Assembly: GCF_019797865.1 (NCBI RefSeq)
Contig: NZ_CP081869.1
Location: forward strand, 3,373,501-3,437,500
From: Chenggangzhangella methanolivorans
GTDB lineage: Bacteria > Pseudomonadota > Alphaproteobacteria > Rhizobiales > Methylopilaceae
Direction: 5' to 3'
DNA length: 64,000 nt
Part shown: positions 7,022 through 19,366 of the stretch, in pieces
Position numbering within the stretch: the stretch's first letter is position 1
Layout of the letters: every line of letters begins with the position of its first letter
Translations under genes and position numbers: made by a program
The notes under the pieces: generated by a model
What the model saw: only the letters and a program-made list of their open reading frames with translations
What the model was told of the DNA's origin: nothing
The model's database searches: none

Positions 7022-7803
7022 GCGGGCTCGTCGCCGAGGACGTGACGGTGAGGCTCGGCGGCCGCGAGGTCGTCTCCGGCGCGAGCCTCGAGGTCCGGCC
7101 GGGCCGCGTCGTGGTGCTGATCGGCCCGAACGGAGCCGGCAAATCCTCGCTGCTCGGCGCGCTGTCGGGCGAGCTTGCGCCAGCTTCGGGGCGCGTCAGC
7201 CTCGACGGCGAGGCGCTGTCGGCGTTTCGCCCGGCCGAGCTCGCCCGGCGCCGCGCGGTGCTGGCGCAGGCCACCGAACTCGCCTTCGCCTTCACGGTCG
7301 ACGAGGTGGCGCGGCTCGGCCTGCCCGCCGGCCTGTCGCGAGCCGAAGCCGACGCGGTCGTCTCTCAGGCGCTTTTGGCCGTCGACATGGCGGGCAAAAG
7401 CCGGCGGATCTGCTCGGAGCTCTCCGGCGGCGAGCGCCAGCGCGTCCATCTCGCCCGCGTGCTCGCTCAGCTCGCCTCGGCGCCCGACGGTCGTCCGCGC
7501 CATCTGATGCTGGACGAGCCGACCGCCGGGCTCGACCTGTCGCATCAGCTCGCGACTCTGTCGCTCGCGCGGCGGCATGCGGAGGCGGGCGGCGGCGTTC
7601 TGGCGGTGCTGCACGACGTCAATCTCGCGGCGATGGCCGCGGACGAGATCGTGGCGCTGAAGGCCGGACGGATCATCGCGCGGGGCGCGCCCGCCGAGGT
7701 GCTGACCGACGCGGTGATGCGCGAGGTCTATGACGTCGAGGCCCGCATCGGCGTCGCGCCGCCCGGCCCGTTCCTGCTGCCGCAGAGCGTGCGGCTGGTT
7801 TGA
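7018..7803 (+). CDS. hmuV: Heme ABC transporter ATP-binding protein HmuV
   Basis: Cytosolic ATPase of the heme importer, 261 residues. Walker A is GPNGAGKSSLL, the signature is LSGGERQRVHLAR, Walker B is LMLDEPTAGLD and the switch His is in VLHDVNLAA. The sequence after Walker A (GALSGELAPASGRVSLDGE) and AFAFTVDEVARLG are typical of HmuV rather than general siderophore ATPases. It overlaps hmuU by ATGA. After it the operon ends in a region of palindromic repeats. Confidence 0.93.
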   Translation: MSGLVAEDVTVRLGGREVVSGASLEVRPGRVVVLIGPNGAGKSSLLGALSGELAPASGRVSLDGEALSAFRPAELARRRAVLAQATELAFAFTVDEVARLGLPAGLSRAEADAVVSQALLAVDMAGKSRRICSELSGGERQRVHLARVLAQLASAPDGRPRHLMLDEPTAGLDLSHQLATLSLARRHAEAGGGVLAVLHDVNLAAMAADEIVALKAGRIIARGAPAEVLTDAVMREVYDVEARIGVAPPGPFLLPQSVRLV

Positions 7804-7814
7804 CCGCAGTTCTT

Positions 7815-7845
7815 GTCCGGGCTCTTCGGCCGGGATGACGGGCGG
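7815..7845. repeat. Half copy of the CCGGG-type palindromic repeat
   Basis: The sequence around CCGGGCTCTTCGGCCGGGA repeats the right arm of the fuller element at 7907-8007 (GCTCTTCGGCCGG followed by GATGACGGGC). It lies 12 bp after hmuV and can itself fold into a hairpin that may aid transcription termination. Confidence 0.55.
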
Positions 7846-7906
7846 AGGGGCGGGCGCCTCTGAAGAGCGGACAGTGACTGCCGAAGGCTCGCGCAGGAAC
7901 CGCAAC

Positions 7907-8007
7907 GGTCATCCCGGGCCTGACCCGGGATCCAGAACCGACGCCGCGGCGAGGTCTGGAACGGCCGGATCGACTCTGGATCCCGGCTCTTCGGCCGGAT
8001 GACGGGC
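7907..8007. repeat. Intergenic palindromic repeat, family C copy 1
   Basis: An approximately 100-bp element with inverted ends: the left contains GTCATCCCGGGCCTGACCCG then GGATCCAGAACCGAC; the right contains CTCTGGATCCCGG and CCGGATGAC. The left half is similar to the element at 63162-63272 (CCCGGACTTGATCCGGGACC then CAGAACCGAC). It is non-coding, between hmuV and the peptide-gene terminator. Confidence 0.65.
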
Positions 8008-8059
8008 GGGTTTTCAAGCGCATGCCCTGACCGGGGCCGCCGGCGCCGAGCGTCGGACG

Positions 8060-8096
8060 AAAAAGGGACCGCCGCGCCCGTCGGCGCGGCGGTCCC
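8060..8096 (-). terminator. Intrinsic terminator of the GG-leader peptide gene
   Basis: GGGACCGCCGCGCC (8065-8078) and GGCGCGGCGGTCCC (8083-8096) are perfect 14-base complements with a 4-base loop. Read on the minus strand the hairpin is followed by TTTTT (8064-8060). It lies about 50 bp after the stop codon of the peptide gene and gives that gene a strong independent end. Confidence 0.85.
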
Positions 8097-8148
8097 CAAA
8101 ACCGCTTGAGCGGCCGACCCGTCGGGCGGACCGGCCTTGTGCGGGGCC

Positions 8149-8346
8149 TTAAGAGACCGTCGCGTGCGGCAGGGCGCCGAGAACGGTGCCGAGCGTGTCG
8201 CCCACGAGCCCGCCGACCTGGTCGATCGTGCCGGACACCGCAGCGAGCTCGCTGCTCAGGTCGAGGCCGAGACCGAGCGTCAGACCGCCGGCGACGTCGT
8301 CGAGCTCGGCGGCGTTGAGCTCACGGATAATTTCGAACTTGGTCAT
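8149..8346 (-). CDS. Double-glycine-leader peptide, microcin/bacteriocin-like precursor
   Basis: A 65-residue peptide. The first 21 residues form a classic double-glycine leader: IREL, then ELNAAELDDVAGG, matching the family pattern of Leu, Glu, hydrophobic and Val at fixed distances before Gly-Gly. Cleavage after G21 would release a 44-residue core that is Gly/Leu-rich, has no Cys and carries four glycines spaced by four (G45, G49, G53, G57), i.e. consecutive GxxxG motifs as in two-peptide class IIb bacteriocins. The ATG at 8346 is preferred over an upstream in-frame start because GGAGAAGGA precedes it. It diverges from the HlyD and C39-ABC genes that would export it. No immunity gene is recognised. 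The function is inferred. Confidence 0.75.
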   Translation of the reverse strand: MTKFEIIRELNAAELDDVAGGLTLGLGLDLSSELAAVSGTIDQVGGLVGDTLGTVLGALPHATVS

Positions 8347-8856
8347 GCAATCCTTCTCCCCTGGAAGGGACGCGCATAAACGCCCCGCCAATGTTTGAAG
8401 AAACGCCGGAGCGGCGCTTCGCCCACGACCTGAGCATCGGTCGCCCGGAGCATCAAGTCCGGCCCCGTGACAGCCGACCGACGGGAAAAACCTTTCGAAT
8501 CAGAAGGGTTTGGCAATTATGTTGATCGTATGATCACAAAATCCGGCGGTCGCTCAGGGAGTTGGTCCCGATCTGGGACACGGCGTCACGGCCCCGCCGC
8601 CCGAAAGATCGCCGGGAGCCGGCGAAAGCCGCCGTTCGAGTCCGCGTCCGCGCAGGCCTCTGAGCCTCAACCGATTTTCAGGACTTGTGCGGCCGGGCGT
8701 CGCATCAGCGGAAATTTCCAGCGAAATGATCGAATGATGAATTTATGCGGCCGCGGGGTGGACGCGGCGGGCGCAGCTGCTCATTCTCGCCGCCTTTTCC
8801 GGCATTGAAGGGGGTTTGACGGTCGCCGCGACGGCCGCAGGGAGCATGCGAGACTC
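8347..8856. other. Divergent intergenic region of the peptide export locus
   Basis: 510 bp between the peptide gene (minus) and the HlyD gene (plus). It must hold promoters for both. An AT-rich patch near 8495-8545, unusual in this DNA, contains GATC-N4-GATC and is the best place to look for a promoter or operator. A plus-strand open frame at 8467-8808 has Ser/Arg-rich composition and no family resemblance, so I do not call it a gene. Confidence 0.5.
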
Positions 8857-10326
8857 TTGTCAAAGATGATGGGCGCCGAGGCGCTGTCCGAGCCGGGCTC
8901 CAGGCCCGAGCCCCAGCCGAGCCCCAAACCGAAGCCGAAGTCGGCGGCTCCGGAGGCCGCGCCTGAAGCCCGCGCGCTCGTCGCGAACGCTTCGGCGGCC
9001 GCGCCGCCTGCGTCCGTCGAGCCGAAGCGCGCGCTGCCGCTGTTCCGCGCCGCCGCGATCTCGGCGCGCGCCGATCAGTGGCTCGGGACGACGCGCGCGG
9101 TGCAGCCCTGGCCGATCCGGGTGGTCGCCTCGGTCGGCGCGGGGCTCGCGGTCGCGGTCGTCGCCTTCCTGATCTTCGGCCAGTACACCCAGCGCGCCCG
9201 CGTGCAGGGCGTGCTCGCGCCGAGCCAGGGCCTCATCAAGCTCGCGGCTCCGCAGCAGGCCAGAATCCTGTCGCTGAAGGTGACGGACGGCGACCGGGTG
9301 GAGAAGGGCCAGGCGCTCTACGCGCTCGACCTCGACCGTCAGACCGAGCTCGGCGCCGCGAGCGAGACGGTGCTGGCCGCGCTGAAAGTCCAGCGCGAGG
9401 AGCTTCGCAAGGAGGTGTTCCGGCGCACCGTCTCGGACACGGAGCGCAAGGACGCTCTCAACGTGAAGATCGGCGATCTCGACCGCGAGACCGCGCAGGT
9501 CGACCGCCAGATCACGACCGGCGAAGAGTACATGAAGCTGCTCGACGAGCAGCTCGGCTCCTATCAGGACTATCTCAAGCGCGGCATCACCGTGCAGCGC
9601 GACGTCGACGACCGCCGCTCGCGGTTGATGACGGAGAAGACCAAGCTCGAGCAGCTGCGCCGCGACCGCGTGCGGCTCGAAAGCGACGCCAACGCCACTC
9701 GCGCCGAGATCGCCCAGATCGACCATGAGGGCGGCTCGAAGCTCTCGGAGATCCGCCGGCAGGTCGCCGAGGCCGACCGCGCCATCGCCGAGGCCGAGGC
9801 GCAGCGGCGGATCGAGATCGTGGCGCCGGAGGCCGGGCGCGTCACCGGCGTCGTGGCCCATGCCGGCCAGGCGGTGCCGAACGGCGCGCCGCTGCTCACC
9901 ATCGTGCCCGACAGCGGCACGCTGCAGGCCAATCTCTACGCCGAATCGAGCGCCATCGGCTTCGTGCGCGAGGGCGACCCTGTGATGCTGCGCTACGCGA
10001 CGTTCCCCTACCAGAAGTTCGGGCAGCATCCCGGGGTGGTCACCGCGATCTCGCGCGCGGCGCTGCGTTCCGACGAGATCGACACCGGCGTGCCGATGCC
10101 GGCCGAATTGCAGGGGCGCGGCGCGCTCTATCGGCTGACCGTCAAGCCCGGATCGTCGGACATCGAGGCCTATGGCAAGCGCGAGCAGCTGCAGGCCGGC
10201 ATGCAGGTGGAGGCCGACATCTTCCTCGACACGCGGCCGATCTGGCAATGGATCCTCAATCCGCTCTTCAGCCTGCGCCCGCTCCATGGCGGGCCGGGGC
10301 AGACGGGCGCGGGAGGCGGCTGGTGA
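8857..10326 (+). CDS. HlyD-family membrane fusion protein for peptide export
   Basis: Periplasmic adaptor of a type I secretion or microcin exporter, 489 residues. There is a long Pro/Ala-rich cytoplasmic N-terminus, one transmembrane helix (VVASVGAGLAVAVVAFLIFG, about residues 88-107), then a lipoyl half-motif (LSLKVTDGDRVEKGQALYAL), a long coiled-coil hairpin (about 170-310), the second lipoyl half (VAPEAGRVTGVVAHAGQAV) and a beta-barrel domain. The start is uncertain: TTG at 8857 has AGGGAG about 12 bases before it, while ATG codons follow at 8866 and 8869. The stop overlaps the ABC gene as GTGA. The most similar known proteins are the MchE/CvaA-type adaptors. Confidence 0.85.
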   Translation: MSKMMGAEALSEPGSRPEPQPSPKPKPKSAAPEAAPEARALVANASAAAPPASVEPKRALPLFRAAAISARADQWLGTTRAVQPWPIRVVASVGAGLAVAVVAFLIFGQYTQRARVQGVLAPSQGLIKLAAPQQARILSLKVTDGDRVEKGQALYALDLDRQTELGAASETVLAALKVQREELRKEVFRRTVSDTERKDALNVKIGDLDRETAQVDRQITTGEEYMKLLDEQLGSYQDYLKRGITVQRDVDDRRSRLMTEKTKLEQLRRDRVRLESDANATRAEIAQIDHEGGSKLSEIRRQVAEADRAIAEAEAQRRIEIVAPEAGRVTGVVAHAGQAVPNGAPLLTIVPDSGTLQANLYAESSAIGFVREGDPVMLRYATFPYQKFGQHPGVVTAISRAALRSDEIDTGVPMPAELQGRGALYRLTVKPGSSDIEAYGKREQLQAGMQVEADIFLDTRPIWQWILNPLFSLRPLHGGPGQTGAGGGW

Positions 10327-12479
10327 GCGCGACCGACGCCGCAGGGCCTGCGCCGGAGACGCGCTCGCTGGTCGAGCGGCTTTCGCTCGGCTGGTCGCGG
10401 CCCAAGACGCCGACGGTGCTCCAGACCGAGGCCGCCGAATGCGGGCTCGCCTGCCTCGCGATGGTCTCGGGCTTCCACGGGCGCCTGGTCGATCTCGCCA
10501 CGCTGCGCCGACGCTTTTCGACCTCGCTCGGCGGGCTGACGCTCAAGCAGCTCGTCTGCATCGCGGGGCGGTTGGAGCTCGCCGCGCGTGCGCTGCGCGT
10601 CGAGATGGAGGCGCTGCCCGAGCTCGCCGTCCCTTGCGTGCTGCATTGGGGCTTCAACCATTTCGTGGTGCTCGAAAGCGTCGGCCCGCGGACCGCCACG
10701 ATCCTCGATCCCGCGATCGGCCGGCGGACGATGAGCCATGAGGAGCTCTCGAAGTCCTTCACCGGCGTCGCGCTGGAGCTGACGCCGACGCAGGACTTCT
10801 CGCCCGCCGACGAGCGGCAGACGATCCGGCTCACCGCGCTGTTCCGCAACGTCGTCGGCCTGCCGGCCGCGATCCTCCAGCTTCTCGCGCTCTCGGTCGC
10901 CTTCGAGGTGTTCACGCTGGCGGTGCCGTTCGGCACGCAGATCATCATCGACCAGGCGATCGTGGCCGCCGACGCCGATCTCGTGACGCTGGTGGCGCTC
11001 GGCCTCGCGCTGCTGGTGGTGCTGCAGACCGCGATGTTCGCCGCCCGCTCCTGGGCCATCATGGCGCTGTCGAACGGGCTGAACGTGCAGTGGGCGAGCG
11101 GCCTGTTCTCGCACCTCATCCGCCTGCCGCTCGACTACTTTGAAAAGCGCCACGTCGGCGACGTCACCTCGCGGTTCCGCTCGCTCGAGACGGTGCAGGA
11201 CACGCTCTCGACGACCTCGGTTCTCTCCGTGGTCGACGGCGTGATGGCGGTCGGGCTCATCGCCATGATGGCGCTGTTCGGCGGCTGGCTCGCGCTCGTC
11301 GCGGTCGGCACGACGCTGATCTACGTCGCGATCCGGGTCGGGGCCTATGCGCCCTACCGCGCGGCGTCGGAGGAGAGCATCGTCCAGTCGGCGCGCGAGA
11401 ACACGCATTTCCTCGAGACCCTGCGCGGCGCCACCACCGTAAAGCTGTTCGGGCTGGAGGAGCGGCGCACGGCCACGTGGCTCAACCTGCTGGTCGACCG
11501 CTTCAACGCCCGGCTCCACACCCAGAAGCTCGACGTGCTGTTCAACTCGGCCACCAAGCTGCTGTTCGGGCTCGACCGGGTGCTGATCCTCTATCTCGGG
11601 GCGAACGCCGTCATCGACCAGAGCGTCACGCTCGGGGCGCTGGTCGCGTTCCTGGCCTACAAGGACCAGTTCGCGACCCGCATCGAGAGCCTCGTGCAGG
11701 CGGCCTTCAAGATGCGGATGCTGAACCTGCAGGCCGAGCGCCTCGCCGACATCGCGCTTACGCCCCGCGAGGTCTCGGGCGAAGGTTTTGCGCCCGCCGC
11801 CCCGGGCCAGTTGCGGCCCGCCACCGCGATCTCGATGAAGAACGTGGGCTTCGCCTATGGCGGCGGCGAGCAGCCGATCGTGCGCGGCTTCGACCTCGAC
11901 ATCCGACCCGGCGAATGCGTCGCGCTGCTCGGGCCCTCGGGCTGCGGCAAGACCACTCTGCTCAAGATGCTCGCCGGCCTGCTGCCCCCGACCTCCGGCG
12001 CGATCGAGATCGACGGGACGCCGCTGAACGAGCGCTCCATGGCCTCCTATCGCGAGCGCATCGGCTGCGTGCTGCAGGACGACCGGCTGTTCGCGGGCTC
12101 GATCGCGGAGAACATCGCGTGTTTCGATCCCGCGCTCGACATGCAGTGGGCGCGCGCCTGCGCGGCCGCGGCCGGCATCGACCACGACGTGATGCGGATG
12201 GCGATGGGCTACGAGACGCTCGTCGGCGACATGGGCTCGACGCTCTCGGGCGGGCAGAAGCAGCGCATCTTCATCGCCCGCGCGCTCTACCGGAAGCCGA
12301 GCCTCTTCCTGCTGGACGAGCCGACCAACCATCTCGACGAGCGGGCGATCGACGTCGTGCTCGACGCGCTGAAACGGCTGCCGATGACGCGCATCGTGGT
12401 CACGCACAACAGCCGGGTCGCGAGCATCGCCGACCGGCAGATCCTGATGTCGCTGCCGCAGGGAGCCGCGAAGGGGTGA
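10323..12479 (+). CDS. Peptidase-containing (C39) ABC exporter
   Basis: A 718-residue bacteriocin-processing transporter of the CvaB/MchF/LagD type. An N-terminal C39 cysteine peptidase (about residues 35-160) has the catalytic Cys in QTEAAECGLACLAM, the His in NHFVVLES and the Asp in ILDPAIG, so the triad looks complete. A six-helix membrane domain follows (about 170-440), then the ATPase with Walker A GPSGCGKTTLL, LSGGQKQR and LFLLDEPTNHLD. The GTG start at 10323 overlaps the HlyD stop. The peptidase is expected to cut after Gly-Gly in a leader such as that of the 8149-8346 peptide while exporting it. No outer-membrane TolC is encoded here. Confidence 0.92.
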   Translation: MSATDAAGPAPETRSLVERLSLGWSRPKTPTVLQTEAAECGLACLAMVSGFHGRLVDLATLRRRFSTSLGGLTLKQLVCIAGRLELAARALRVEMEALPELAVPCVLHWGFNHFVVLESVGPRTATILDPAIGRRTMSHEELSKSFTGVALELTPTQDFSPADERQTIRLTALFRNVVGLPAAILQLLALSVAFEVFTLAVPFGTQIIIDQAIVAADADLVTLVALGLALLVVLQTAMFAARSWAIMALSNGLNVQWASGLFSHLIRLPLDYFEKRHVGDVTSRFRSLETVQDTLSTTSVLSVVDGVMAVGLIAMMALFGGWLALVAVGTTLIYVAIRVGAYAPYRAASEESIVQSARENTHFLETLRGATTVKLFGLEERRTATWLNLLVDRFNARLHTQKLDVLFNSATKLLFGLDRVLILYLGANAVIDQSVTLGALVAFLAYKDQFATRIESLVQAAFKMRMLNLQAERLADIALTPREVSGEGFAPAAPGQLRPATAISMKNVGFAYGGGEQPIVRGFDLDIRPGECVALLGPSGCGKTTLLKMLAGLLPPTSGAIEIDGTPLNERSMASYRERIGCVLQDDRLFAGSIAENIACFDPALDMQWARACAAAAGIDHDVMRMAMGYETLVGDMGSTLSGGQKQRIFIARALYRKPSLFLLDEPTNHLDERAIDVVLDALKRLPMTRIVVTHNSRVASIADRQILMSLPQGAAKG

Positions 12480-12510
12480 GTTGGGTTCGCATCAGCGCGT
12501 CCGAACCACC

Positions 12511-12612
12511 GCCGTCATGCCCGGCCGTCAGGCCGGGTATCCACGACTGTGTTTGACGAGGGCGCCGCTTCCCAAGTCGTGGATACCCGCGCTTCGCGCG
12601 GGCATGACGGCC
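12511..12612. repeat. Intergenic palindromic repeat, family B
   Basis: A 102-bp near-perfect inverted repeat. The left arm starts GCCGTCATGCCCGGCC and ends GTATCCACGAC; the right arm starts GTCGTGGATAC and ends GGGCATGACGGC. Each arm contains its own hairpin (CCCGGCC/GGCCGGG and CCCGCGC/GCGCGGG). It lies between the converging ABC exporter and DUF1501 genes and probably also acts as a transcription barrier. Confidence 0.8.
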
Positions 12613-12658
12613 GAGGTTTTGGCGATCGTCTGTCAGATGAGCCGAAAGCGCGCGGCCC

Positions 12659-14014
12659 TCAAACCCCGTAGGCCGCGCGATACTTGGCGATGCCGGTCGT
12701 CGGCCGCAGCGCAGCCTTCGACGGGCCGCGCACGCCCGCGACCTTCGCGCTCGACGGCGCCGAGCCGCGGATCAGCCCCTGCATCGGCGCGACGTCGGCG
12801 GAGTCCGGGAACACCGTGGTGTCGAGCACGTTGCGCGGCACGCCGACATGATCGGCGAGCACGCCTTTGAACACGGCGCGAAGGTCGGTGGTGGCCTTGA
12901 GGTCGCTGTCGTCGACGAGCTGGGAGGCGGCGAGGCCCGGCCAGTCGCCATAGACTTTGCCGCCCTGCACCGCGCCGCCGGCGAGCAGCGCCACCGTGCC
13001 GACGCCGTGGTCGGTGCCGTTCCCGCTGTTGACCCGCACCGTGCGGCCGAACTCGGTCGCCATCACCACCACGGTCTTGGACCAGACCGGCGCGGCGTAG
13101 TCGGCGAACTCCTTCAGGCCGACGTCGAGCTCGTTCAGCGAGCCCCACAGGAAGCCGTCCGTCGCGCCCTGGTTGGCGTGGGTGTCGAAATTGCCGACCG
13201 AGAGCACCGCGATGCGCGGCCCGTTGCTCGAGGCGAGCAGCCGCCCGGCGCCGCGGAACGCGCGGCGGAACTGCGAGACGTTCTGGTCTTCGTCCGACGA
13301 TGTCTTCTCGGCGAGCGCGTCGGCCTTCATCCCGGCCCTCAGCGCGTCGTAGAGCTCGGTGTCGCGCTTGCGCAGCAGCGTCACGACGGCGTCCGAGGTG
13401 GGCGCGGGCGGGTGCGAGAACCAGGTGGGCGACCAGCCGAGAACGGGCGCCGGGCCGCGCAGCAGCAGCGGCGCCTCGCCGACCTGGATCGCGCCGTAGG
13501 CGTCGATCGGAGAGCCGCTCGGCATCGACGAGAGCAGGCGGTTCAGCCAGCCGGTCGGGTTGGATGAGAGGCCCGGCAGGCCGCTCTCGAGATTGTCCTG
13601 GCAGTCGAAATGCGAGCGGTTCTGCAACGGCGTGCAGACCGCGTGCACCGCCGCCGCCTGGCCGGAGAGATACATCTGGCCGAAGGAGGGCAACGCGGAG
13701 TTGAGGCCGAAATAGCTGGTGTTGAGCGACAGCGTCGCGTCGCGCGGGATGGCGATGCGGCCGCGCATGCCCGCATAGGCGGCGTCGCCATGCGGCACGA
13801 CGACGTTGATCCCGTCCATGCCGCCGCGCAGCACCACGATGAGGAGCCGCGGATCATCGGAGGCGGCGCTTGCGGTCTGCGGCAGATAGGCGGCGGAGAA
13901 CAGGCCCGCGGTGATGCCGAACACCGCGCGGCGCGACAGCAGCAGGCGGGATTCCGCGCAGCCTTCGGCGGCGGCCGCGGCGAGGCGCTGGGAGACGGGA
14001 TCGGTCACGCTCAT
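12659..14014 (-). CDS. DUF1501 family secreted protein
   Basis: A 451-residue protein of the DUF1501 family (sulfatase/alkaline-phosphatase-like fold). A twin-arginine-type signal is visible near residues 25-50 (LLSRRAVFGITAGLFSAAYL), so export is expected. Family features include VVLRGGMDGINVVVPHGD, HAVCTPLQNRSHFDCQDNLE, and the C-terminal VVVMATEFGRTVRVNSGNGTDHG. The ATG at 14014 overlaps the upstream DUF1800 stop as ATGA. DUF1501 and DUF1800 proteins are often encoded as a pair, but their joint function is not established. Confidence 0.9.
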   Translation of the reverse strand: MSVTDPVSQRLAAAAAEGCAESRLLLSRRAVFGITAGLFSAAYLPQTASAASDDPRLLIVVLRGGMDGINVVVPHGDAAYAGMRGRIAIPRDATLSLNTSYFGLNSALPSFGQMYLSGQAAAVHAVCTPLQNRSHFDCQDNLESGLPGLSSNPTGWLNRLLSSMPSGSPIDAYGAIQVGEAPLLLRGPAPVLGWSPTWFSHPPAPTSDAVVTLLRKRDTELYDALRAGMKADALAEKTSSDEDQNVSQFRRAFRGAGRLLASSNGPRIAVLSVGNFDTHANQGATDGFLWGSLNELDVGLKEFADYAAPVWSKTVVVMATEFGRTVRVNSGNGTDHGVGTVALLAGGAVQGGKVYGDWPGLAASQLVDDSDLKATTDLRAVFKGVLADHVGVPRNVLDTTVFPDSADVAPMQGLIRGSAPSSAKVAGVRGPSKAALRPTTGIAKYRAAYGV

Positions 14015-16693: not shown

Positions 16694-18136
16694 TCACGCG
16701 GCCTGCAGGAACGGGAGGGCGAGACGAAGATCGGCGACGAAGCGGTCGAACTCCTCCTGTTTGCGCGCTTCGTCCGGCAGGCGCAGCAGGTAGGACGGGT
16801 GGACCGTCACCAGCACGTCGGGCGCGCCCTCGCGCTCCATGATCGCGCCCCGGGCGTCGCCGACCTTCACGGCGCGCCCGATGACCGCGCGCGCCGCGCT
16901 CGCGCCCATCGCCACCACGAGGCGCGGGCGGATGGCGCCGAGCTCGCGCTCGAGCCAGCCGCGGCAGGCGGCGATCTCGCCGGGCGCGGGCGACTTGTGC
17001 AGCCGAAACTTTCCGCGCGGCTCGAACTTGAAGTGCTTCACCGCATTGGTGACGTAGAGCTTCTCGCGCTCCACGCCCGCGGCCTCCGCGGCCCGGTCGA
17101 ACAGCGCGCCCGCGGGCCCGACGAAGGGGCGGCCGGCGATGTCCTCCTTGTCGCCGGGCTGCTCGCCGACGACCACCACCTGCGCGCCCTCCGGCCCCTC
17201 TCCGAACACGGATTGCGTCGCCGGCCCCCATAGCGGGCAGGCGCGGCAGCCCTCGACCATCTCGCGCAGCGCCGAAAGCGGCGTCGGATCGCGCTCCGGG
17301 GCGGCGGGCGGGGGCGACATCAATCTCTGGCCCTTCTTCGGCTCGGCCGCGGGCGCCGCGACCATCTCGTCGGAGCGCCGCTGGGCCTGCGCGATCAGAG
17401 GACCGATGAGCGGGGCCTCGGGAAGGTTGCGCCAGTACTTCTTCGGCATCTCGGCCCGCATCGCCGAGACCTTGAGGCGCGCCGGGTTGAAGATCGAGGC
17501 GTAATAGGTCCGCCACAGCGCCTCGAGCGCGTCGCCTTCGGGCGCGTCGGCGCGGTTCGCGCCCTCGGCGATCTCGAGCCGCGTCCCGTTCCAATGCGCC
17601 GAGCGCCGCGGTGTGAGGATCGACCAGCGCATCGCCGAAAAGCGCCGCATGAAGAAGGGCGCGGTCGCCGCCACGATGTGATGCTCGGGCTCGAACCAGG
17701 CGACGAACTGCGGCGCGCCGTCCTCGCCCGATATCTCGCGGAAGCGCACGAAGGCGGTCATCTTGTGCTTGTCGCGCCGCACCGCCTTCACGAGCGCGCG
17801 GGCGCGCGTCAGGTCCGGGTCGGCGGCGTCCTCCATCAGCCGGCGGTCGGCCGCGACCCGCGTCAGCAGGCGGTAGAACAGGTCGAAACGGCCGGGATCG
17901 GAATGAAGCAGACCGGTTTCGGCGAGCTCGAGGAAGCTGCGCGGCACGCTCGGCGCCGGCGCGCCCGCGACCTGCGGGGAGGGCGCGTCGTCGGTCCCGA
18001 ACAGGTCGCGGTCGTCCTCGCCGACGCGCCAGTCGACCGTGAACGGCGGCGCGCCCTCGGCGAGCAGCCCGCGCGCCGCGCGCCGCCAGCCGGCGACGTC
18101 GTCGGGCTCGGCGAGCACGATCCGCCGCCCGCTCAC
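16694..18136 (-). CDS. DUF4130 / UdgX-type uracil-DNA glycosylase fusion
   Basis: A 480-residue two-domain DNA repair protein. The N-terminal half (about residues 30-250) is the DUF4130 'probable DNA metabolism' domain, with TAFVRFREI and FNPARLKVSAMRAEMPKKYW. The C-terminal half (about 280-475) is a UdgX-like glycosylase: motif GEQPGDKEDIAGRPFVGPAG, YVTNAVKHFKFE, and the histidine loop KFRLHKSP (KRRIH in the studied UdgX, where the His bonds covalently to DNA), then VHPSYLL. The Arg-Arg of the loop is Phe-Arg here. The GTG start at 18136 overlaps the radical SAM gene's TGA, so the pair is coupled. Its partner and an SOS box upstream point to damage-induced repair. Confidence 0.88.
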   Translation of the reverse strand: MSGRRIVLAEPDDVAGWRRAARGLLAEGAPPFTVDWRVGEDDRDLFGTDDAPSPQVAGAPAPSVPRSFLELAETGLLHSDPGRFDLFYRLLTRVAADRRLMEDAADPDLTRARALVKAVRRDKHKMTAFVRFREISGEDGAPQFVAWFEPEHHIVAATAPFFMRRFSAMRWSILTPRRSAHWNGTRLEIAEGANRADAPEGDALEALWRTYYASIFNPARLKVSAMRAEMPKKYWRNLPEAPLIGPLIAQAQRRSDEMVAAPAAEPKKGQRLMSPPPAAPERDPTPLSALREMVEGCRACPLWGPATQSVFGEGPEGAQVVVVGEQPGDKEDIAGRPFVGPAGALFDRAAEAAGVEREKLYVTNAVKHFKFEPRGKFRLHKSPAPGEIAACRGWLERELGAIRPRLVVAMGASAARAVIGRAVKVGDARGAIMEREGAPDVLVTVHPSYLLRLPDEARKQEEFDRFVADLRLALPFLQAA

Positions 18137-19366
18137 AGCGCGAGCGCCATCTGGCGGGGCTTCGGCCGGAACCGCTCGATCAGGCGCTCGCTCTCCAGCG
18201 CCGCGATCGAGGGGCGGTGGTCGGCGAGCTTGAGGAAGGGCGAGACCTTGGCGAGCGACACCTTCAGCCGCGCGAGGTCCTCGCTGCGGATGGCGCGGAA
18301 GCGGCGCGCCGAAAGGATCCGGTCCACCGTGGTCTTGCCGAGGCCCGGCACCCGCAGCAGCTCCTCGCGCGAGGCCGTCTGGCAGTCGAGCGGGAAGCGG
18401 CCGCGATGGCGCAGCGCCCAGGCGAGCTTGGGGTCGAGCTCGAGGTCGAGCATGCCGCCGGCCTCGGTGATCTCGGAGACCGAAAAGCCGTAGAAACCGC
18501 ATCAGCCAGTCGGCCTGGTAGAGCCGATGCTCGCGCATCAGCGGCGCGGGCTTGAGCGGCAGGCGCGCGCTTGCGTCTGGAATCGGGCTGAAGGCGGAAT
18601 AATAGACCCGCTTCAGCCGGTAGCCGGCGTAAAGATTGGCGGAGGCGTCGAGGATCAGCCGGTCGTCGGCGGCGTCCGCGCCCACGATCATCTGCGTGCT
18701 CTGGCCCGCGGGCGCGAAGCGCGGCGGTTTCGCGCGCGTCTTGCCGTCGGCCTTGGAGGCCTCGATGCGGGTGCGAAGGCCCGCCATCGCGCGCCGCACC
18801 GCCCGCACGTCCTTCTCGGGCGCGAGCGTCTTGAGACTCGCCTCGCTCGGCAGCTCGACATTGATCGACAGGCGATCGGCGAAGAGTCCGGCTTCCGCGA
18901 TGAGCTCGGGCGAGGCGTCCGGAATGGTCTTGAGGTGGATGTAGCCCTTGAAGCCGTGGTCGATCCGCAGCGAACGCGCGACCCGCACCACCTGCTCCAT
19001 CGTGTAGTCCGGACTGCGGATGACGCCCGAAGACAGGAACAGGCCCTCGATGTAGTTCCGCCGGTAGAAGTCGAGCGTCAGGTTGACGATCTCGGCGATC
19101 GAGAACCGGGCCCGCGGCGTGTTGCTCGACGCGCGATTGACGCAATAGAGGCAGTCGAACGCGCAGGCGTTCGTCATCAGTACCTTCAGGAGCGAGATGC
19201 AGCGGCCGTCCGGCGCGTAGGAGTGGCAGATGCCGGCTCCCTCGGTCGAGCCGAGGCCGCCGCCGGCCCCGCCGAGCGAGTTCCGTTTCGTCGTGCCGCT
19301 CGACGCGCAGGAGGCGTCGTATTTCGCGGCGTCGGCCAGAATTGCGAGCTTACGGGTGACATCCAA
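18133..19366 (-). CDS. Putative DNA modification/repair radical SAM protein (frameshifted)
   Basis: A member of the radical SAM family that accompanies UdgX-DUF4130 (rSAM_link_UDG type). The 4Fe-4S motif CxxxCxxC is seen as ACAFDCLYC about residues 68-76. The C-terminal part has a helix-hairpin-helix DNA-binding motif (LRVPGLGKTTVDRILSARRF). One extra base in the AAA at 18494-18496 splits the gene: removing it turns DWLMRFLRLF into DWLMRFYGFSVSEI and joins the two parts. The start is the TTG at 19366, since a TAA lies in frame just upstream and AAGGA precedes it. It is the first gene of the operon with UdgX. Confidence 0.85.

What the first reader, a model, noticed from the sequence alone, without database searches (positions are those of the whole stretch)
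8149..12479. Candidate microcin-like system: GG-leader peptide, HlyD adaptor and C39-peptidase ABC exporter
The sequence shows a 65-residue peptide with a textbook double-glycine leader (ELNAAELDDVAGG), its own Shine-Dalgarno and strong terminator, divergent from an HlyD adaptor and an ABC exporter whose C39 peptidase has Cys, His and Asp in place. Known C39 exporters cut after Gly-Gly and export the core. The 44-residue core has no Cys and resembles no named microcin I recall. An antibacterial or signalling peptide in an alphaproteobacterium is inferred.
Basis: partly seen in the sequence, partly recalled or inferred. Interest (0 to 1): 0.78.

Follow-up and report, generated by a model that had tools for sequence, protein, structure and literature searches.

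The report
Exported glycine-zipper peptide and its exporter
A relative of the methanol-eating bacterium Methylopila carries a compact three-gene unit predicted to make a short sticky peptide, trim it and pump it out; it looks like a weapon of the kind known from Caulobacter, but no antidote gene was recognised beside it and its action is untested.

Summary
Window 8149-8346(-) encodes a 65-aa precursor (21-aa double-glycine leader, 44-aa core) with Shine-Dalgarno and strong terminator, divergent from HlyD (8866-10326) and a C39-ABC exporter (10323-12479). It is a real gene: the peptide occurs in 6 of 18 family genomes, the same six that carry the orthologous exporter, and in 5 genomes of another family. 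In 7 of these 11 genomes the exporter is the only C39 protein found. The core carries a glycine zipper (GxxxGxxxGxxxG). In one genus the cassette lies between pckA and ybaB in 2 of 30 loci, while in 12 of 30 these two genes are neighbours; the extra stretch holds only peptide(s), HlyD and exporter as recognisable genes. Scans found no convincing immunity gene. Conservation is mixed: across the deepest split the core (61-68%) outlasts exporter (49-51%) and adaptor (38%), but in 4 of 8 closer pairs it is less conserved than the exporter. Best reading: a C39-processed, exported glycine-zipper peptide, in function closest to Caulobacter CdzC/D; killing is inferred only. A non-toxic surface or signalling role is a serious rival. 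New member of a known kind.

The parts
8149..8346 (-). Precursor peptide gene, 65 aa: leader residues 1-21 (8284-8346), core residues 22-65 (8152-8283)
   Evidence: Homologues in 6 of 18 family genomes and strongly in 11 of 397 genomes of the order; alignment of 12 homologues
8351..8361 (-). Shine-Dalgarno region GGGGAGAAGGA of the peptide gene
   Evidence: Sequence; GGGAGAAG kept in the four lineage-I genomes aligned
8064..8097 (-). Hairpin of the intrinsic terminator of the peptide gene, followed by T5
   Evidence: Folding, z -6.3
8347..8865 (.). Divergent intergenic region; element CCAATGTTTGAAGAA at 8388-8402 identical in G014 and G015, two changes in G017
   Evidence: Upstream alignment; function not tested
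8866..10326 (+). HlyD-type periplasmic adaptor, 486 aa
   Evidence: Pfam HlyD_3 and HlyD_D23 over cut-off; TIGR01843 under its cut-off (125.1 of 208.65)
10323..12479 (+). C39-peptidase ABC exporter, 718 aa
   Evidence: Pfam C39, ABC_membrane, ABC_tran over cut-off; solved relatives include bacteriocin transporter 4ry2, ComA and HlyB
10407..10793 (+). C39 double-glycine peptidase domain
   Evidence: Pfam PF03412; aligned to 6mpz and ComA

Best explanation
A three-gene secretion cassette makes one small hydrophobic peptide. The precursor is bound through its leader by the C39 domain of the exporter, cut after Gly20-Gly21, and the 44-residue core is pumped through the ABC channel, HlyD and a TolC-type pore encoded elsewhere (supported by homology and conservation; cleavage and export not shown). 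The core forms a long helix with a glycine zipper, so it is expected to self-associate and enter membranes (inferred). The most likely use is as a bacteriocin of the glycine-zipper kind, working like Caulobacter CdzC/D near or on the producer's surface, with self-protection coded elsewhere or given by the exporter or envelope (inferred). The confidence below is for this whole chain; for processing and export alone it is about 0.9.
For: Peptide and orthologous exporter occur in the same 6 of 18 family genomes. Of 397 genomes of the order, 12 hold an exporter at E below 1e-220 (threshold set after seeing the list); 11 have this peptide (in G279 the homologous copy lies at the end of another contig and the second peptide beside HlyD). 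The twelfth, G251, has three GG-leader ORFs with other cores just before its HlyD gene. Exporters with the peptide form one group, support 91/91, among 19 rows (not starred, and the program warned that long branches meet). In 7 of 11 peptide genomes the exporter is the only C39 match. C39 columns intact. OEP (TolC-type) matches in the window's genome. The window core has GxxxGxxxGxxxG, found in 1.6% of 20,000 shuffles of its own letters; 10 of 12 homologues have it. AlphaFold core helix 29-63, block means 74-89 for residues 31-60. Three genomes carry a second, different GG peptide and one has two tandem copies, as in two-peptide bacteriocins. 8 of 12 homologues touch Bacteriocin_IIc, best E 1.8e-5. 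Core dN/dS exceeds that of the exporter in several pairs, up to 0.316/0.370 for G344-G388 against 0.152/0.668. Peptide and exporter genes are divergent in 10 of 11 genomes (co-directional in G131), like the two divergent operons of cdz (passages of PMC5380434).
Against: No immunity gene recognised: a scan of 10 of 11 cassettes for ORFs of 30-160 codons with a hydrophobic stretch and coding-like GC3 gave, besides peptides, ORFs antisense to known genes and one 40-codon ORF in G131 without relatives in 11 other stretches; the scan had no positive control. Across the deepest split the core is better conserved (61-68%) than exporter (49-51%) and HlyD (38%), unlike an arms-race toxin. The window core is weakly hydrophobic (best 19-residue mean 1.06 against 1.58-1.83 in the other 11) and has one Asp inside its zipper. 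The model is only moderately confident (mean pLDDT 69.6) and Foldseek found no PDB match. Related exporters G135 and G102 showed no GG-leader candidate by pattern. No activity data.
Confidence: 0.5

Rival explanations
1. Exported but not a weapon: the core is a surface-associated or matrix peptide that assembles through its glycine zipper, or a signal sensed by the producer. No immunity gene is needed.
For: No immunity gene recognised; core better conserved than its machinery across the deepest split; low core dN/dS in some pairs, e.g. G186-G279 0.040/0.437 and the G131 tandem copies 0.078/1.15; AraC-type regulators near the cassette in 3 of 11 genomes (G007, G012, G131).
Against: In 4 of 8 within-lineage pairs the core is less conserved than the exporter (OWN-G015, OWN-G017, G186-G388, G344-G388); patchy presence at differing sites is more typical of competition genes; paired glycine-zipper peptides recall bacteriocins; no receptor gene common to the cassettes was seen.
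Confidence: 0.3
2. A diffusible, ordinary class II bacteriocin whose immunity gene is unlinked or is a tiny ORF missed by the scans.
For: Unlinked immunity cannot be excluded; PMC5380434 (section 13) reports that immunity genes of Cdz-like systems were hard to identify; weak Bacteriocin_IIc likeness.
Against: In G186 and G344 the extra stretch between pckA and ybaB holds only peptide(s), adaptor and exporter as recognisable genes; the window peptide is under the Bacteriocin_IIc and MccV cut-offs.
Confidence: 0.15
3. Chance ORF beside an exporter for something else.
For: The ORF is short and rich in Gly and Leu.
Against: 12 homologues with 29 invariant residues in two families, always with the same exporter clade.
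Confidence: 0.02

Closest known systems
Cdz system of Caulobacter crescentus (CdzA/B exporter, CdzC/D glycine-zipper bacteriocin, CdzI immunity; PMC5380434)
   Same: Alphaproteobacterial type I exporter in divergent arrangement with small glycine-zipper peptides that have a leader; no modification enzymes seen; outer-membrane channel not in the cluster; some relatives have two peptides
   Different: No CdzI-like gene recognised; window peptide is single and shorter (65 against 86 and 84 aa); one Asp inside the zipper. CdzC/D sequences were not at hand, so no direct alignment was made
Class II microcins (MccV type)
   Same: GG leader, C39-ABC exporter and HlyD adaptor, small peptide
   Different: MccV model under cut-off in the window peptide (14.4 of 27) and matching 1 of 12 homologues at E 0.1; no immunity gene recognised; anionic Gly/Leu core
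Class II bacteriocins with GG leader (Pfam PF10439, Bacteriocin_IIc)
   Same: GG leader and GxxxG core; 8 of 12 homologues match at E 0.1 or better, best 1.8e-5
   Different: Window 16.5 and L070:9705-9905 22.9 bits, under the 27.1 cut-off; bits of the other members were not shown; no second peptide in the window cassette
Nap island peptides of Neisseria (PMC11798529; passages seen)
   Same: Bacteriocin-like GG peptides linked to a C39 peptidase, reported not to kill competitors
   Different: Cationic peptides with a FapF-type channel there; anionic peptide with HlyD and ABC exporter here

Membership tests
C39-exported double-glycine peptides (broad kind) | Leader with conserved acidic/hydrophobic pattern ending in GG | tested here: met
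   M1, R8, L10, E14, L15, D16, V18, G20, G21 invariant in 12 aligned leaders, 9 of this peptide type and 3 of the second type
C39-exported double-glycine peptides (broad kind) | Adjacent ABC exporter with intact C39 domain | tested here: met
   only C39 match in 7 of 11 genomes
C39-exported double-glycine peptides (broad kind) | HlyD adaptor and an outer-membrane TolC-type channel | tested here: met
   HlyD adjacent; OEP matches elsewhere in the genome; which one serves is unknown
C39-exported double-glycine peptides (broad kind) | Cleavage after GG and export of the core | not testable with these tools
   Needs mass spectrometry
Cdz-like (criteria of PMC5380434, section 13) | 60-151 residues, leader ending G[G/A/S], type I exporter within 10 kb | tested here: met
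   65 aa, GG; adaptor gene 0.5 kb and ABC gene 2 kb away
Cdz-like (criteria of PMC5380434, section 13) | Glycine zipper flanked but not interrupted by proline or charged residue | tested here: not met
   Window zipper holds one Asp (GLVGDTLGTVLG); orthologues G014, G015, G017 read GLVGGLLGTVTG
[quoted passage not shown]
   Ends PHATVS
Cdz-like (criteria of PMC5380434, section 13) | Small transmembrane immunity protein beside the toxin (as CdzI; the paper found such genes only sometimes in Cdz-like systems) | tested here: not met
   None in the window cassette; in 10 of 11 cassettes scanned only antisense ORFs and one 40-codon ORF in G131 without relatives
Cdz-like (criteria of PMC5380434, section 13) | Contact-dependent killing by surface aggregates | not testable with these tools
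   Needs competition assays
Class II microcin, MccV type | Match to the MccV model over cut-off | tested here: not met
   14.4 of 27 bits
Class II microcin, MccV type | Adjacent immunity gene | tested here: not met
Bacteriocin_IIc, PF10439 | Match over gathering score | tested here: not met
   Window 16.5 of 27.1 bits; 8 of 12 homologues match weakly, best E 1.8e-5
NHLM bacteriocin export (TIGR03796) | Exporter over equivalog cut-off | tested here: not met
   479.2 of 853.3 bits

The most novel reading that the evidence does not exclude
A relocating, immunity-free cassette that secretes a glycine-zipper peptide whose job is not to kill but to build or mark the producer's surface, or to signal, so that over long times the cargo is kept better than its own exporter and adaptor.
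Probability: 0.22. Interest if true: 0.7.

Novelty: new member of a known kind. Interest (0 to 1): 0.42.

Why it matters
It is a minimal system (the exporter is the only C39 match in 7 of 11 genomes) in which processing, export and action of a glycine-zipper peptide could be tested in cultured methylotroph relatives. If it kills, the question is how a producer survives without a linked immunity gene; if it does not, it is another use of bacteriocin-type export. The window peptide reaches no Pfam or NCBIfam cut-off, and the best family matches of its 12 homologues are weak (E 1.8e-5 in Pfam; 0.0014 in NCBIfam).

Tried and rejected
Rejected: chance ORF. NHLM export (exporter under the TIGR03796 cut-off). 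Anti-phage defence: four PADLOC matches on the exporter lie in its ATPase part; none on peptide or HlyD. Modified RiPP: TigB matches 6 of 12 homologues at E 0.0014 or worse, ATP-grasp-target 3 of 12 at 0.031 or worse; no modification enzyme was noticed by eye in the gene lists, which were not scanned as a whole. Phage or plasmid carriage: no match in plasmids, phages or viral contigs. EcfG-type promoter: none by a simple pattern in 300 bases upstream of 15 peptides. Rfam: nothing at gathering score in 7800-12700. Foldseek of the peptide model against PDB: none.

Literature: 'Methylopila' with 'bacteriocin' gave 3 papers, none on topic by title; any two of Hansschlegelia, Chelatococcus, bacteriocin, microcin, double-glycine gave 1,219 papers, 15 listed, none of which mentions either genus. 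I found no account of this peptide in those searches; the supplementary list of 239 Cdz-like proteins in PMC5380434 could not be read, so it may be in that list. Dropped from the counts: weak peptide hits G375 (leader-like only) and G330 (inside a 293-aa frame, not examined) of the 13, and hits at E 0.01-1.

Limits: genomes are drawn samples (397 order, 385 class, 398 phylum). My gene caller is crude. Substitution rates rest on 38-55 core codons of low-complexity sequence. In the gap-ORF comparison one weak match joins less close genomes (G186 with G131, same genus, 36% over 50 residues, E 7e-4, polar, no start codon examined). Empty-site reading covers 30 of the 57 genomes with ybaB (59 searched). 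On checking I lowered the non-toxic rival from 0.32 to 0.30 and the novel case from 0.25 to 0.22 and raised the best explanation from 0.48 to 0.50, because a recount showed the core less conserved than the exporter in 4 of 8 within-lineage pairs, and one search added weak Bacteriocin_IIc matches.

Full report
What is there. The finding's coordinates are right. On the minus strand at 8149-8346 lies a 65-codon gene with a good Shine-Dalgarno and a strong terminator (hairpin 8064-8097). It faces away from an HlyD adaptor (8866-10326) and a C39-ABC exporter (10323-12479) whose genes overlap by four bases. The C39 domain aligns with the solved double-glycine protease 6mpz, with the Q, C, H and D columns matched (their catalytic role is recalled).

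It is conserved. In the window's family, 6 of 18 genomes carry the peptide at E 1e-14 or better and the same six carry an exporter at E below 1e-100; the other twelve have no exporter match at 1e-100 and at best weak peptide hits (E 0.01 or worse). In 397 genomes of the order, five more, all of one genus (g85) in another family, carry it strongly; two further hits near E 5e-4 were set aside. Samples of the class (2 of 385) and phylum (4 of 398) showed it only in genomes already known. Twelve homologues share 29 invariant residues, in leader and core.

It belongs to this exporter. Twelve of 397 genomes hold an exporter at E below 1e-220, a threshold chosen after seeing the list. Eleven have the peptide: in ten beside the exporter, in G279 at a contig end, with a second peptide type beside HlyD on the other contig. 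G251 has three GG-leader ORFs with other cores before its HlyD gene. Of the weaker exporters examined, G135 and G102 showed no GG-leader candidate, and G205 and G295 showed short GA- or GG-ending ORFs with unrelated cores. The exporters with the peptide form one group (91/91, not starred, with a long-branch warning) of two well-supported lineages. The second lineage occurs in both families: that of G007 and G012 is 75% identical to G344 of the other family but 51% to the window's, which suggests transfer, or old duplication and loss. In 7 of 11 genomes there is no other C39 match.

The cassette and the missing immunity gene. Flanking genes differ among most of the genomes. In genus g85, ybaB was found in 57 of 59 genomes. 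Of the 30 loci read, 12 have pckA 68-754 bases from ybaB, 2 (G186, G344) have the exporter there, and 16 have something else or too little sequence. In G186 and G344 the stretch between pckA and ybaB holds only peptide(s), HlyD and exporter, plus ORFs with poor codon signal. G131 has pckA beside ybaB and its cassette elsewhere. Whether the cassette was inserted or lost was not tested. A scan for ORFs of 30-160 codons with a hydrophobic stretch and coding-like GC3 within 1.5 kb of 10 cassettes (G279 left out) gave, besides peptides, only ORFs antisense to known genes and one 40-codon ORF in G131, which has no relative in 11 other stretches. The scan had no positive control. ORFs in the gaps are shared mainly by close relatives, in several frames and on both strands, as expected of related DNA; exceptions are an AraC-type regulator downstream of the peptide in G007 and G012 and one weak, polar match between G186 and G131.

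The core. It is Cys-free, anionic and rich in Gly and aliphatic residues; the window core has GxxxGxxxGxxxG, found in 1.6% of shuffles of its own composition. AlphaFold gives a leader helix and a core helix with moderate confidence. Three g85 genomes have a second, different GG peptide and one has tandem copies. Pfam Bacteriocin_IIc touches 8 of 12 homologues, best E 1.8e-5.

Conservation is mixed. Across the two lineages (window against G007, G012, G186, G344) the core is 61-68% identical, the exporter 49-51%, HlyD 38%. Within lineages the core is less conserved than the exporter in 4 of 8 pairs (window-G015 75.0 against 83.6; window-G017 73.8 against 83.5; G186-G388 70.6 against 78.7; G344-G388 64.7 against 79.2) and equal or better in the other four. 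Core dN/dS runs from about 0.07 (G012-G007, and the G131 tandem copies) to 0.85 (G344-G388). So the core is held over long times yet changes freely between relatives; this fits neither a strict arms race nor a frozen structural peptide. PMC5380434 reports that in Cdz-like systems the exporters are the more similar part (section 18).

Mechanism. Supported by homology and conservation: GG-leader precursor, C39 processing exporter, adaptor, TolC-type proteins in the genome. Inferred: cleavage after G21, export, zipper-driven association, membrane action. I put about 0.9 on processing and export, 0.5 on a Cdz-like bacteriocin, 0.3 on a surface or signalling role.

Comparison with the known. It works most like Cdz, but the window copy misses two tested Cdz features (uninterrupted zipper; linked immunity gene), so I do not file it as Cdz. 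It meets the testable features of the broad kind, C39-exported double-glycine peptides. Papers: PMC5380434 was seen as outline, passages and sections 13, 18 and 32; PMC11798529, PMC8386478 and PMC12502724 in passages; PMC11896636 in outline; the rest only as search listings.

Noticed in passing
L042:7680-9761(-) (G000:C1:3925679-3927760): The window's genome has a second C39 exporter, 46% identical. A 313-aa protein over no Pfam cut-off lies upstream, with relatives next to the equivalent exporters in G015 and G017. Its cargo is unknown.
   Followed up: partly
L121:9754-9960(+) (G000:C1, about 1840753): An orphan 68-aa GG-leader peptide with a different hydrophobic core, over 1.5 Mb from either C39 exporter, beside a gene that looks like xseA (recalled); it may use one of the two exporters.
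   Followed up: partly
   Followed up: partly
window 16694-19366 and the window's genome: The 890-aa ORF reads sensibly at both ends but as an arginine-rich wrong frame in the middle, as a compensated pair of frameshifts would give; with a stated completeness of 88% in one 5.5-Mb contig this hints at indel errors in the assembly.
   Followed up: no
L040:8000-8989(-), L041:7962-8953(-), L070:10764-11600(+): AraC-family regulators near the cassette in G012, G007 and G131; in G007 the frame is broken into two ORFs.
   Followed up: partly
L122-L151: In genus g85 the interval beside ybaB varies: of 30 loci, 12 have pckA next, 2 the peptide cassette, 16 other genes or too little sequence.
   Followed up: partly
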